Assembly: GCA_947568835.1 (NCBI GenBank)
Contig: OX387603.1
Coordinates: 1,551,701-1,615,700, forward strand
Length of the DNA stretch: 64,000 bases
Direction of reading: 5' to 3'
DNA from: Protonemura montana
Taxonomy: Eukaryota > Arthropoda > Insecta > Plecoptera > Nemouridae
Shown: positions 15,001-21,000 of the stretch, one piece after another
How the letters are laid out: each line of letters opens with the position of its first letter
How positions within the stretch are numbered: the stretch's first letter is position 1
Notes under the pieces: model-generated
Databases searched by the model: none
The model's input: the letters and a program-made list of their open reading frames with translations, nothing else
Told to the model about the DNA's origin: nothing
Position numbers and translations under genes: made by a program

Positions 15001-18000
15001 CCGATCTCCACCTGTCGCGGGTGTTGCTTTAACCAATTGAGCTACTTGGACCCCGATCTCCACCTGTCGCGGGTGTTGCTCTAACCAATTGAGCTACTTG
15101 GACCCCGATCTCCACCTGTCGCGGGTGTTGCTCAGATCTCAAGGATTGGAACCATAAGGTTCACAGCCACTCTGATTCCAGGGACGCTACAACGCATTAA
15201 CATTCATTCAAATGCCAGTAAATCTTTGATGGTACAAATGTTCAAGAGAGAAGTTAAGTTAAGATGATCGAGGGCTCTGAATAATAAGACGAAAGTTATC
15301 AACTGTCGGTGGTTAAATACCAAAATACCAAATACTCAAAATACCAGCCAAACCATTCGGTGGTCACCCATCCAATACCTGACCCAGCGCAGTGTTGCTT
15401 AACTTTCATCCCTCCAACCTCTCTCCCAAACAGAACTGGTCATGCGTATGATGGTCACCCATCCAATACCTGACCCAGCGCAGTGTTGCTTAACTTTCAT
15501 AACGAGGACTCACCGAAAGCGTATACGTCGACGCTCTCGTCGTAATGCTCCTCGTACATCTCAGGGGCCATGAACTCTGGCGTCCCGATCACAGACTTGG
15601 CAAACGACTTGTTCTTCAAAGTCGCCAATCCAAGGTCACCGATCTTCACCGATCCTAGTCGGGGAAACACGCGGTGAGAATCAACGGCTTGCAAGCAATG
15701 ATAGCAAAAATGTAACGTAAACCAGTCGAGTTCTTCCCTATCCCTCATAAGCTCGAGGTGTTCTTGGTGAAAAATATATACTTCCTCCTAATTTTATGCA
15801 AAATAGACTTGAAGCTCTACCAAATCAGCTTTCACTACCAGGATAGCCGGCTACCAGGATCGAACCTGGGACCTCTCGAATGCAAGACAGACATGGCGCT
15901 CTCACTACCAGGATAGCCGGCCACCAGGATCGAACCTGGGACCTCCCGAATGCAAGACAGACATGGCGCTCTCACTATTAGGATAGCCGGCCACCAGGAT
16001 CGAACCTGGGACCTCTCGAATGAAAGGCAGACATGGCGCTCTCACTACCAGGATAGCCGGCCACCAGGATCGAACCTGGGACCTCCCGAATGCAAGGCAG
16101 ACATGGCGCTCTCACTACCAGGATAGCCGGCCACCAGGATCGAACCTGGGACCTCGTGAATGCAAGGCAGACATGGCGCTCTCACTACCCGGATAGCCGG
16201 CCACCAGGATCGAACCTGGGACCTCTCGAATGCAAGGCAGACATGGCGCTCTCACTACCAGGATAGCCGGCCACCAGGATCGAACCTGGGACCTCCCGAA
16301 TGCAAGGCAGACATGGCGCTCTCACTACCAGGATAGCCGGTCACCAGGATCGAACCTGGGACCTCGTGAATTAGAAGAGAAAGTTACCTGTGGTCCCGGT
16401 GATGAAAATGTTGTCGCACTTGAGGTCTCTGTGAATGATGGGCGGGGCTCTGGAGTGGAGGAAGCTAAGTCCCTTCAAGATCTGACGGCACCACGACTTG
16501 AGCACCTTCAGGTTGATCTTCTTAAATCGGCGCAAGTAGCTGTCAACATCGATACCAAATTAGCTCAACAAGATAAAAATTCAATTGAATCCATTAATTT
16601 TCTACCGCGGCAACTCACGTCTTCAGCGTCCCCGAGGTCATTAACTCCGTGACGAGGACGATGAACTTCTTCTTCGGCAGCGCGACCTCCCAGTAGTCGT
16701 AGAATCGAACGATGTTCGCGTGCTGCAGACCCTTGAGCATCTCGGCCTCCTCTCGAAACCGCAGTCGCTCCGTCTTGTTGAGCTTCTTCTCTTGCAGTTC
16801 ACACCAAGCCACGGCCACGCCCGTCTGCGTATCCAGTCCGCGGAACACTGTCTTGAAGCTGCCTCGGCCAATCTCCTCCTCGAACTTCAAGAAGCGGCCA
16901 TCGAGAGAAGTTCCTGTTAAAACCACAACAAAAACTTTAGAGTAATCCCGACCTAGAGCGGTGATTCGTAGCCCTGGTATTACTGTCAGTAGCAACGTGC
17001 TAACTAGCACCACCATAGCACCAAGCAGTGACCCTGGTATTACTGTCAGTAGCACCGTGCTAACTAGCACCACCATAGCACCAAGCAGTGACCCGGGTAT
17101 TACTGTCAGTAGCACCGTGCCAACTAGCACCACCATAGCACCAAGCAGTGACCCTGGTATTACTGTCAGTAGCAACGTGCTAACTAGCACCACCATAGCA
17201 CCAAGCAGTGACCCTGGTATTACTGTCAGTAGCACCGTACTAACTAGCACCACCATAGCACCAAGCAGTGACCCTGGTATTACTGTCAGTAGCACCGTGC
17301 TGACCAGCACCACCATAGCACCAAGCAGTGACCCTGGTATTACTGTCAGTAGCACCGTGCTAACTAGCACCACCATAGCACCAAGCAGTGACCCTGGTAT
17401 TACTGTCAGTAGCAACGTGCTAACTAGCACCACCATAGCACCAAGCAGTGACCCTGGTATTACTGTCAGTAGCACCGTGCTAACTAGCACCACCATAGCA
17501 CCAAGCAGTGACCCTGGTATTACTGTCAGTAGCACCGTGCTAACTAGCACCACCATAGCAACAAGCAGTGACCCTGGTATTACTGTCAGTAGCAACGTGC
17601 TAACTAGCACCACCATAGCACCAAGCAGTGACCCTGGTATTACTGTCAGTAGCACCGTGCTAACTAGCACCACCATAGCACCAAGCAGTGACCCTGGTAT
17701 TACTGTCAGTAGCACCATGCTAACTAGCACCACCATAGCACCAAGCAGTGACCCTGGTATTACTGTCAGTAGCACCGTGCTAACCAGCACCACCATAGCA
17801 CCAAGCAGTGACCCTGGTATTACTGTCAGTAGCAACGTGCTAACTAGCACCACCATAGCACCAAGCAGTGACCCTGGTATTACTGTCAGTAGCACCGTGC
17901 TAACTAGCACCACCATAGCACCAAGCAGTGACTCTGGTATTACTGTCAGTAGCACCGTGCTAACTAGCACCACCATAGCACCAAGCAGTGACCCTGGTAT

Positions 18001-21000
18001 TACTGTCAGTAGCACCGTGCTAACTAGCACCACCATAGCACCAAGCAGTGACCCTGGTATTACTGTCAGTAGCACCGTGCTAACTAGCACCACCATAGCA
18101 CAATGCGGCTCTAGGTTAGGGTTGGTAGTATTGTCAATAGATTGCTCTAGGTCTTGAACGGAGGATTTCCTGAGGACCGCCGCTCGTGACTCACCGATAG
18201 CTTCCTCCTCGTCGTCGTTAGCGTGGGCGTGTCTCGCAGCACGAAGCCCCGCCTCCAGCTCGAGAGCGGACGGCGTTGCCGTGACGATGTCCTCGTTCAC
18301 CCCGACTCCTCCCACTCCCGCGGCGAACCCGATGGACGCGCCGGGGCTGTCGTAGTTTGCAAATTCCACCACTTTGCGCGCCACCTGTCACGAGAATCAC
18401 ATCCACGGGTCACGTTCTGAATTCTAGACAGGACATTATAGAGACTATGTTGGTGAAGAAGTCAGTGAATATAAGGATGATGATGAACCTAACCTAGCTC
18501 TAGAAGGGAGAAGGGGAAACCTGGTGCCGGCACGTAGCCTACTCCTGTCAAAGACCAAGGGGACCACCGGCTTAACGTCCCTTCCGAAGGACGGTACAAC
18601 GCGAACAACAGGATTCCTCCACAAATCCATGCTGTCGAGAGGTTGATAAGCAAGGCGAGTGAAGTTGCTGTACTAACTTTCATCCCTCCAACCTCTCTCC
18701 TGAACAGAACTGATCATGTGTATGATGGTCACCCATCCAATACCTGACCTAGCGCAGTGTTGCTTAACTTTCATCCTTCCAACCTCTCTCCTGAACAGAA
18801 CTGGTCATGTGTATGATGGTCGCCCATCCAATACCTGACCCAGCTCAGTGTTGCTTAACTTTCATCCCTCCAACCTCTCTCCCGAACAGAACTGGTCATG
18901 TGTATGATGGTCGCCCATCCAATACCTGACCCAGCGCAGTATTGCTTAACTTTGATGATCTTTGGGGACCGATATTTCCAACACACCAAACCCGTTTGGT
19001 AAAACGGACAGAGAATTCGACAGTGTCCGTGGCTTGCTACGAACCTCGGGTATTTTTTCCTCGAGCGTTTGCTCGACATCTGAGCCAGCACCGTCGTCGC
19101 TGACGTCGTTGATGGTTCCAACGTTGACCACTAGGCGCTCTCGGTGCGTTGTCCTGACAGAAACAAAGAGATCGTTAGCTCGGGGCTCGGCCAACGAGGG
19201 GAGACGTTTCATTCGATGTGAAATCTGATTGCAATTGCAAACGCTTGCAGCGTGCAAAGCATTTCATTATTATTAGGGACTCAAATTACTTCTCGAAAAT
19301 TGGTGTCTAAACGGGGACTCGAACCCCAATCTCCACCTGTCGCAGATGACCCTTTCTCTCTAAAATCCTTTCCAAAAGCCCGTGTTTGTTGGTTAGAGCA
19401 ACACCCACGACAGGTGGAGATCGGGGTCCAAGTAGCTCAATTGGTTAGAGCAACACCCACGACAGGTGGAGATCGGGGTTTGATTCCCCGTTCGAGCATC
19501 AATTTTTGACAAGTTATTAGTGTTTCTAATAATAAAATACCTTTTCTTCGAGGCCCAAGCAATGTAATGGACACATTTCATTTCAACTATATGAGGTTTT
19601 CGTGGAAAGATACTTTTGAAATAATACCATTAAAGAACTGCTTTTAACGTCAGCACCCGACTGGCGCGGCATTCAGAAATCAAATTAAAACTACGTCAAC
19701 ATGTTGGAAGAGTTTTTATCAGACGAGTAACAAACACATTCTGATTGTTTCCAGACTCATGTCTACTTGATCTAAACTTAGCAATAGTTTTAACAAAAAC
19801 TATTTCAACTGGGTTTTCAATGCTAAGTGAAGAACAACTAAATTTCCCCACGTTTTGTAACTTGTACCTGTTACTTTATCAAGGGTAAGAGCAGTCCTGA
19901 CAATTTTCCAATAACAAAAGAACCACATAAAATTATAACAATTACCAAGTTCAAGCAAACATTCCATTGGATTGTGTTTTGACAACAAAATATTCTACAC
20001 GCTCTGCACCCACCTGTTGTTGGACATGAAGAGTTCCTTGGCCCACGAAAATCTGCCGCCCTCGTCAACGAAAGTCACGCGCTTCGTGCCGTTGGCTTCC
20101 ACCGCTGCCAACTCAGCAGACTCATTCGACGGGAACTCCACTGGAGCCGCTTCCGGTGAAATTATTGGTAGCGTGTTGGCGCCAGTGACACTCGGGTCCT
20201 GTTCCTCGATGTCGACATCTTCAACTGCGTCGGGACCAACAGAGCTCGTAGAAACACTGCTCAGTTCCGGGAACTCCGTGGCGCTGACAAATTCCCCTTC
20301 GTCGTTGGCATCCGAGACAGCATCCAGGACTGCATCCGGGACTGCATCCGGGACGGCATCCAGGTTCCCGGTCTCCTCCGCCGAGCCGACACTTTCTCTC
20401 GCTCGGCCATCGCTAGATTCCGGACTCCACACGCCACTCAAACCCGCTGTAGTCACTTCCACCGATATCACTTCCACTTTCGATGGGCACTCGTTCGAAC
20501 TCACGACACAAGTTTCGAGGTTAGAGTTAGTTTCCGTCACCGAGTCGGCTTCCCTCGATTCCTGGACGTCGGTGGACGGCGGAGGATTCATCTCGGAATC
20601 CGCTTTCGATGGTTGTGGTCCTCTCGAGGCTGCCAAGCCGACGCGGTCGCAGACATCGGGCGTTATCGATTGGCTGGCTGGGTCGGTGGGAGGAGTCTCG
20701 CTGCTCTGTGATTGGTCCGATTTAGAGGAGGGTGACAAGGTCGACTGCGATTGGTCAGGATGAGAAGTCGACGGCGTGCGAGGGGCTTCGGATTTTCGGC
20801 CAGAGCGGCTGCATAAGCTCGACAAAGAGTTCTGTGAAATGCAAGAGAAATTAATTGTGTTACTTAGGTTTTGCTTGCTAATTTGACTGGGCATGTGACT
20901 CTGTCCCAGTGCAACTTTCACGTGTTCGACTGGGCATGTGACTCTGCCCCAGTGCAACTTTCACGTGTTCGACTGGGCATGTGACTCTGTCCCAGTGTAA

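What the first reader, a model, noticed from the sequence alone, without database searches (positions are those of the whole stretch)
16914..18194. WNK intron 5 is a stop-free, in-frame minisatellite that would encode a 19-fold hydrophobic repeat
The intron between the pre-kinase exon and the kinase N-lobe exon is 1,281 nt (427 x 3), has no stop codon in the WNK frame and keeps the frame from exon 5 into exon 6. If retained, it would insert about 19 copies of a 20-residue, membrane-like hydrophobic unit ([14 protein letters not shown] core) directly before the kinase domain. Either this is a recent 60-bp minisatellite neutral in the intron, or it is an exitron-like alternative coding segment. 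A cytosolic kinase with an optional multi-pass hydrophobic insert would be new.
Basis: partly seen in the sequence, partly recalled or inferred. Interest (0 to 1): 0.78.

Follow-up and report, generated by a model that had tools for sequence, protein, structure and literature searches.

The report
Dispersed minisatellite inside a WNK intron
The intron really is an unbroken in-frame stretch made mostly of a tandem repeat, but that repeat is one copy of a genome-wide family that is often open elsewhere too, so the open frame is best read as a coincidence and not as a hidden protein segment.

Summary
WNK intron 5 (18194 to 16914, minus strand) is 1,281 nt = 427 x 3, has no stop in the WNK frame, and is mostly 18.8 copies of a 60-bp unit. 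The unit belongs to a dispersed family: 3,279 unit matches in the 258-Mb genome, reversed control 0, in about 45 other places. A related 86-bp unit, probably the parent, lies in larger elements whose arms are tandem repeats with an inverted terminal motif, as in foldback transposons. The WNK array is flanked by that motif in both orientations, so the intron looks like a roughly 66-nt intron that received such an element. Of 21 other stretches examined, 12 have some frame open end to end, 9 in the same frame. Changes among units are nonsynonymous and synonymous in about the proportions expected without coding constraint. Two other introns with this repeat were read: one is divisible by three with a single stop in its phase, the other is neither in frame nor open. 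Chance for one such intron is about 1%; repeat-filled introns were not counted. No RNA data were available.

The parts
18195..18384 (-). WNK exon 5 (pre-kinase exon)
   Evidence: splice sites read; open frame continuous with neighbouring exons when introns are removed
16914..18194 (-). WNK intron 5, 1,281 nt, phase 1, GTGAGT...ACAG, no stop in the WNK frame
18156..18194 (-). 5' intron part outside the element, about 39 nt
   Evidence: left edge set by the degenerate left-arm unit; no match to this stretch among the places scored (34 of 316 candidates scored), other than itself
18123..18155 (-). probable degenerate left-arm (70-bp family) unit of the foldback-like element
18106..18122 (+). terminal motif T, inverted relative to the other copy (3 mismatches to CCGCTCTAGGTCGGGGT)
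   Evidence: 2 matches in the window, 0.04 expected, both flanking this array
16972..18101 (-). 60-bp tandem array, 18.8 copies
16945..16961 (-). terminal motif T, right end (1 mismatch)
   Evidence: similarity to other loci reaches about 16941
16914..16940 (-). 3' intron part outside the element, 27 nt, with T-rich tract and acceptor
16619..16913 (-). WNK exon 6, kinase N-lobe
   Evidence: WNK1 and WNK3 hits, best E 2e-44; Pkinase

Best explanation
The intron is an ordinary, spliced-out intron. An originally short intron (about 66 nt of non-repeat sequence remains) received a non-autonomous, foldback-like element, or a fragment of one. The element's right arm is made of an 86-bp unit or its 60-bp relative, and the 60-bp form multiplied to about 19 copies by unequal exchange or slippage. 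Because 60 is a multiple of 3 and the unit has one stop-free frame on each strand, such an array is open in one of three frames whichever way it inserts. In this intron that frame, the short flanks and the total length happen to agree with WNK. Shown: the dispersal of the family, the related 86-bp unit, the inverted terminal motifs, changes without sign of coding constraint, the continuous spliced frame. Inferred: insertion by transposition, the 86-bp unit as parent, the order of events, and constant splicing.
For: 3,279 matches of a 66-nt unit pattern (up to 3 mismatches) in the genome, reversed control 0; right-arm motif 1,549 and left-arm unit 1,913 matches, controls 0; arrays in about 45 other places (my count by eye from the partial listings). 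Larger copies show a left arm of 70-bp units with inverted T, a centre, and a right arm of 86- or 60-bp units. The WNK array is flanked by T in opposite orientations. Changes against the unit consensus among 18 WNK units: 8 nonsynonymous, 5 synonymous (5 and 4 distinct), where 66% and 33% are expected; 851 units of 21 other stretches: 794, 356 and 8 stop (321, 185 and 2 distinct, summed per stretch). Units with a stop in this frame: 19 of 851 elsewhere, 0 of 18 in WNK. 13 of 22 arrays, WNK included, have a frame open end to end. Spliced exons give one open WNK frame with [21 protein letters not shown] across the junction, and the WNK1 match starts at the second complete codon after it.
Against: Chance for one such intron is only about 1% (left flank open 0.28, right flank 0.34, array frame 1/3, length 1/3), so this is a notable coincidence that rests on there being many repeat-filled introns, which I did not count. 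Of the three introns with this repeat that I read, two (WNK, L029) have lengths divisible by three. The WNK sample of changes is too small to exclude weak constraint. No target-site duplication was recognised at the ends printed (by eye, 8 loci, ends uncertain), so transposition is not proven. No RNA evidence was available.
Confidence: 0.85

Rival explanations
1. Exitron-like optional coding segment: the intron is sometimes kept, giving a WNK with a 427-residue, largely hydrophobic insert before the kinase domain.
For: No stop, length 427 x 3, GC 0.51. Without a stop, retained transcripts would not be marked as carrying a premature stop.
Against: No excess of synonymous changes; the same frame is open in 9 of 21 other stretches; donor GTGAGT equals that of intron 6, 6 of 9 consensus positions each; exons join into a normal WNK without it. 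Nineteen directly abutting 20-residue hydrophobic segments with almost no loops is an unlikely membrane topology (inference).
Confidence: 0.03
2. The element has a role in splicing: its inverted terminal motifs pair in the pre-mRNA and loop out the array, bringing donor and acceptor together so that the intron is handled like a short one.
For: Inverted motifs 18106-18122 and 16945-16961; nine pairs between them have probability 0.51-0.54 in the folded intron and three more 0.30-0.32; a long-range stem at that place appears in the centroid structure.
Against: Inverted ends are what a foldback-like element carries anyway; no test of whether selection keeps the stem; no shuffled control at this length.
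Confidence: 0.08
3. Low-level noisy retention yields an aggregation-prone WNK product with no function.
For: The open frame would let any leaked transcript be translated through.
Against: No transcript evidence either way; splice sites look ordinary.
Confidence: 0.04

Closest known systems
Tetris foldback transposon and its TIR-220 satellite, Drosophila virilis (PMC4079207; outline with abstract and section 10 read)
   Same: Non-autonomous element whose inverted arms hold tandem repeats of variable number, with the internal repeat also forming longer satellite-like arrays.
   Different: Units here are 60/86 and 70 bp, not about 220 bp; I recognised only the terminal motif as shared between the two arms; target-site duplications (8-10 bp in Tetris) not recognised here.
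Cg_HINE Helentrons with satDNA-like central repeats, Pacific oyster (PMC7492417; outline with abstract read)
   Same: Short satellite-like arrays spread through a genome as parts of non-autonomous mobile elements.
   Different: Helentron structure was not looked for here; our arrays are flanked by an inverted motif.
Exitrons (PMC10985678; passages read)
   Same: No stop codon, length a multiple of three, fairly high GC.
   Different: No evidence of retention or of coding constraint; splice sites not evidently weak; here it is a repeat-filled intron between two exons.
Intronic VNTRs such as TERT VNTR6-1 and the ABCA7 VNTR (PMC11830802, PMC5954066; search listing with start of abstract only)
   Same: Tandem repeat array inside an intron, in those cases linked to splicing.
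   Different: Here the unit is a multiple of three and stop-free in the host frame, and is one copy of a dispersed family; no effect on splicing is known.

Membership tests
Exitron | no in-frame stop | tested here: met
   0 stops in the WNK frame
Exitron | length a multiple of three | tested here: met
   1,281 = 427 x 3; intron 4 of the same gene is also a multiple of 3 (660 nt) but has 9 stops
Exitron | GC content nearer to exons than to ordinary introns | tested here: inconclusive
   0.51 against 0.40, 0.49, 0.35 and 0.54 for introns 3, 4, 6 and 7; exon GC not computed
Exitron | weaker splice signals than ordinary introns | tested here: inconclusive
   donor GTGAGT, 6 of 9 consensus matches, same as intron 6; only two donors scored, by consensus only
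Exitron | retained form is made and exported | not testable with these tools
   no RNA data
Exitron | sequence behaves as coding sequence (my own criterion) | tested here: not met
   18 WNK units show 8 nonsynonymous and 5 synonymous changes, as expected without constraint; small sample
Foldback-type non-autonomous element | inverted ends | tested here: met
   two inverted T motifs flank the array; the same arrangement in larger copies
Foldback-type non-autonomous element | tandem repeats within the arms | tested here: met
   70-bp left-arm units and 86- or 60-bp right-arm units in L014, L017, L047, L057
Foldback-type non-autonomous element | arms that are inverted copies of each other over long stretches | not tested
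   only the terminal motif was recognised as shared; no measurement of longer inverted similarity was made
Foldback-type non-autonomous element | target-site duplication | tested here: inconclusive
   outer ends of 8 loci printed; none recognised by eye; ends not sharply defined
Foldback-type non-autonomous element | mobilised by a transposase in the genome | not tested
   no search for an autonomous partner was made
WNK kinase | WNK-type N-lobe (Lys in the glycine-rich loop, Cys in the usual Lys place; recalled) | tested here: met
   GRGSFKTVF and VAWCEL in the exons; best hits WNK1 and WNK3 in the PDB

The most novel reading that the evidence does not exclude
A transposon-borne minisatellite with a stop-free, multiple-of-three unit could turn introns into latent in-frame inserts: in WNK, and almost in a second gene (L029), an insertion has made a long hydrophobic reading frame that only splicing keeps out of the protein, so some tissues or conditions may expose it.
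Probability: 0.04. Interest if true: 0.6.

Novelty: new member of a known kind. Interest (0 to 1): 0.15.

Why it matters
It shows how an eye-catching reading frame can arise from a dispersed repeat, and gives a rule for such cases: check whether the repeat is open elsewhere before reading it as coding. The repeat family is a usable example of a foldback-like element that fills introns with satellite-like arrays. If retention were ever shown, it would be a striking route to new protein segments.

Tried and rejected
Exitron reading: rejected as the main explanation on the pattern of changes and the open frames of other arrays.

Naming the species: COX1 on a 15,885-base mitochondrial contig reads through with the invertebrate mitochondrial code (a first translation was on the wrong strand) and looks arthropod-like from memory. 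A paper search by assembly and mitochondrial size listed 3 papers, none with a genome of this size. Left open.

Finding genes around other arrays: 30 ORFs from 16 of the 21 fetched stretches were scanned against Pfam. L018 alone has the same family (SBP56) on both sides of the array; the upstream exon's hit (E 2.4e-6, 27.1 bits) is below the curated cut-off of 34. At L029 the downstream ORF has a weak coiled-coil hit (E 1.2e-4, below cut-off), an ORF further upstream has weak Cytochrom_B561 and DUF2839 hits (below cut-off, set aside), and I read the splice sites and phase by eye. Hits at L023 (apolipoprotein and two others, none reaching the cut-off) were set aside as probably compositional. 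So only two comparison introns were obtained.

The 21 fetched stretches come from 20 places: L021 and L022 lie in the same region of contig C15. Several arrays (L016, L021, L022, L024, L025, L027) run to or near the edge of the stretch fetched, so their end-to-end openness is for the part held. Three of 854 units (two in L013, one in L027) fell under 80% identity and were dropped before the counts; the last, partial WNK unit was not counted. Intron coordinates for introns 4 and 7 were one base off and were mended; intron 5, on which the chance estimate rests, was right. The chance estimate uses sequences sampled from dinucleotide frequencies of the two flanks.

Print: searches (15 of 98 papers listed; 20 of 38; 10 of 2,047; 12 of 54) showed no report of this intron or this repeat in their listings; this is weak evidence of absence.

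Full report
On the minus strand, WNK intron 5 runs from a GTGAGT donor at 18194 to an AG ending at 16914. It is 1,281 nt, divisible by three, phase 1, without a stop in the WNK frame; the other two frames hold 59 and 21 stops. Tandem Repeats Finder gives 16972-18101, period 60, 18.8 copies, 97% matches. The unit translates as [20 protein letters not shown], with mean hydropathy 2.14. The gene is a WNK: exon 6 matches WNK1 and WNK3 chains with E down to 2e-44.

An open frame in a minisatellite is easy to get. I took 24 arrays from the 53 rows; the five whose period is divisible by three (18, 30, 39, 42 and 60 bp) each have two or more stop-free frames out of six. In this array one frame is open on each strand; the plus strand carries its own 403-aa open frame. 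Because the unit is 60 bp, copy-number change never shifts the frame.

The 60-bp unit is not special to WNK. The genome in which the window lies (258.5 Mb, 34 contigs) has 3,279 matches to a 66-nt pattern of the unit with up to three mismatches, against none for the reversed pattern. By my count of the partial listings, arrays lie in about 45 other places. I fetched 21 stretches from 20 of them (L021 and L022 lie in one region). They hold from 14 to 125 recognised units, several being cut by the edge of the stretch.

The family has a structure. Several loci hold an 86-bp unit, which is the 60-bp unit plus a 26-bp piece containing the motif CCGCTCTAGGTCGGGGT. In L047 and L057 mostly 86-bp units form one arm, in L014 and L017 60-bp units take that place, and in all four the other arm consists of 70-bp units carrying the same motif inverted. 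Genome-wide the right-arm motif pattern has 1,549 matches and the left-arm unit 1,913, controls 0. This resembles a foldback-type element such as Tetris of Drosophila virilis (PMC4079207: abstract and section 10 read). I recognised no target-site duplication in the eight loci whose ends I printed, so the means of dispersal is inferred, as is the 86-bp unit being the parent of the 60-bp one.

The WNK copy fits this plan. The window has two matches to the motif with up to three mismatches, where 0.04 are expected, and they flank this array in opposite orientations. The similarity to other loci ends near 16941 on the right. That leaves about 39 nt and 27 nt of other intron sequence, 66 nt in all, not far from the 79 nt of intron 6. 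A short intron that received an element, one arm of which grew, is the simplest history; the order of events is inference.

The units do not evolve like coding sequence. With transitions weighted twice, single changes of the unit would be 66% nonsynonymous, 33% synonymous and 1% stop. The 18 WNK units counted show 8 and 5 with no stop (5 and 4 distinct changes); 851 units from the 21 other stretches show 794, 356 and 8 (321, 185 and 2 distinct, summed per stretch). Nineteen of the 851 contain a stop in this frame, so none in 18 is unremarkable. The WNK sample is small and could not show weak constraint. Thirteen of 22 arrays, WNK included, have at least one frame open end to end; in 9 of the 21 others it is the WNK frame.

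Other introns with the same repeat are the direct comparison, but I have only two. In L018 the array lies between two exons of a selenium-binding protein gene (SBP56, E 7.3e-24 and 2.4e-6, the second below the curated cut-off); the intron is 1,216 nt, not divisible by three, with stops in all three frames. In L029 an intron of a probable coiled-coil gene, read by eye, is 1,725 nt, divisible by three, and in its phase has a single stop 12 nt into the intron. So two of three introns with this repeat have lengths divisible by three, and one of three is fully open. With so few cases this neither supports nor excludes selection; it does show how readily this repeat nearly makes an in-frame intron.

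How surprising is the WNK case? With flanks sampled from their own dinucleotide frequencies, the left flank is open in 28% and the right in 34% of trials; with 1/3 for the array frame and 1/3 for length, about 1% of such introns would look like this. The genome is rich in dispersed arrays (one 5S-derived unit alone has 27,253 matches), so some such cases are expected if many arrays lie in introns; I did not count introns, so no expected number is given.

Splicing looks ordinary. The donor hexamer equals that of intron 6, and the acceptor follows a T-rich tract. Joined without introns, the exons read through ...[26 protein letters not shown]..., a normal WNK start of the kinase domain. The two inverted motifs could pair in the transcript (nine pairs at probability 0.51-0.54), which might help to loop out the array; this is only a suggestion, and the fold had no shuffled control.

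Only RNA data can close the question.

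Noticed in passing
18674-18953, 3420-3698, 45919-46374, 48650-48930, 57041-57552: Arrays of a 91-bp unit that resembles 5S rRNA (Rfam 5S_rRNA above cut-off at 18881-18999 and 3627-3745). A 59-nt piece of the unit has 27,253 matches in the genome with up to 3 mismatches, reversed control 0.
   Followed up: partly
14606-15133, 50591-51163, 52439-52752, 19426-19498: 52-bp arrays that look like pieces of a tRNA gene by eye; ARAGORN calls tRNA-Ser and Rfam calls tRNA at 52420-52492 and 19426-19498, in or like such sequence.
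   Followed up: no
15828-16365: 70-bp array in WNK intron 7 whose unit looks tRNA-like by eye. Introns 4, 5 and 7 of this one gene hold three different arrays.
   Followed up: no
8841-10788: Arrays with periods of about 39-42, 30 and 39, multiples of three with several open frames; possibly coding repeats of the WNK gene further downstream.
   Followed up: no
37741-37960: 18-bp unit, 12.2 copies, 99% matches, open in all six frames.
   Followed up: no
L034 (G000:C4:5760925-5762262) and L035 (G000:C34:3504-4841): A chromosomal copy of mitochondrial COX1 has the same score as the one on the 15,885-base mitochondrial contig, which suggests a recent nuclear insertion or an assembly error; the two were not aligned.
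   Followed up: no
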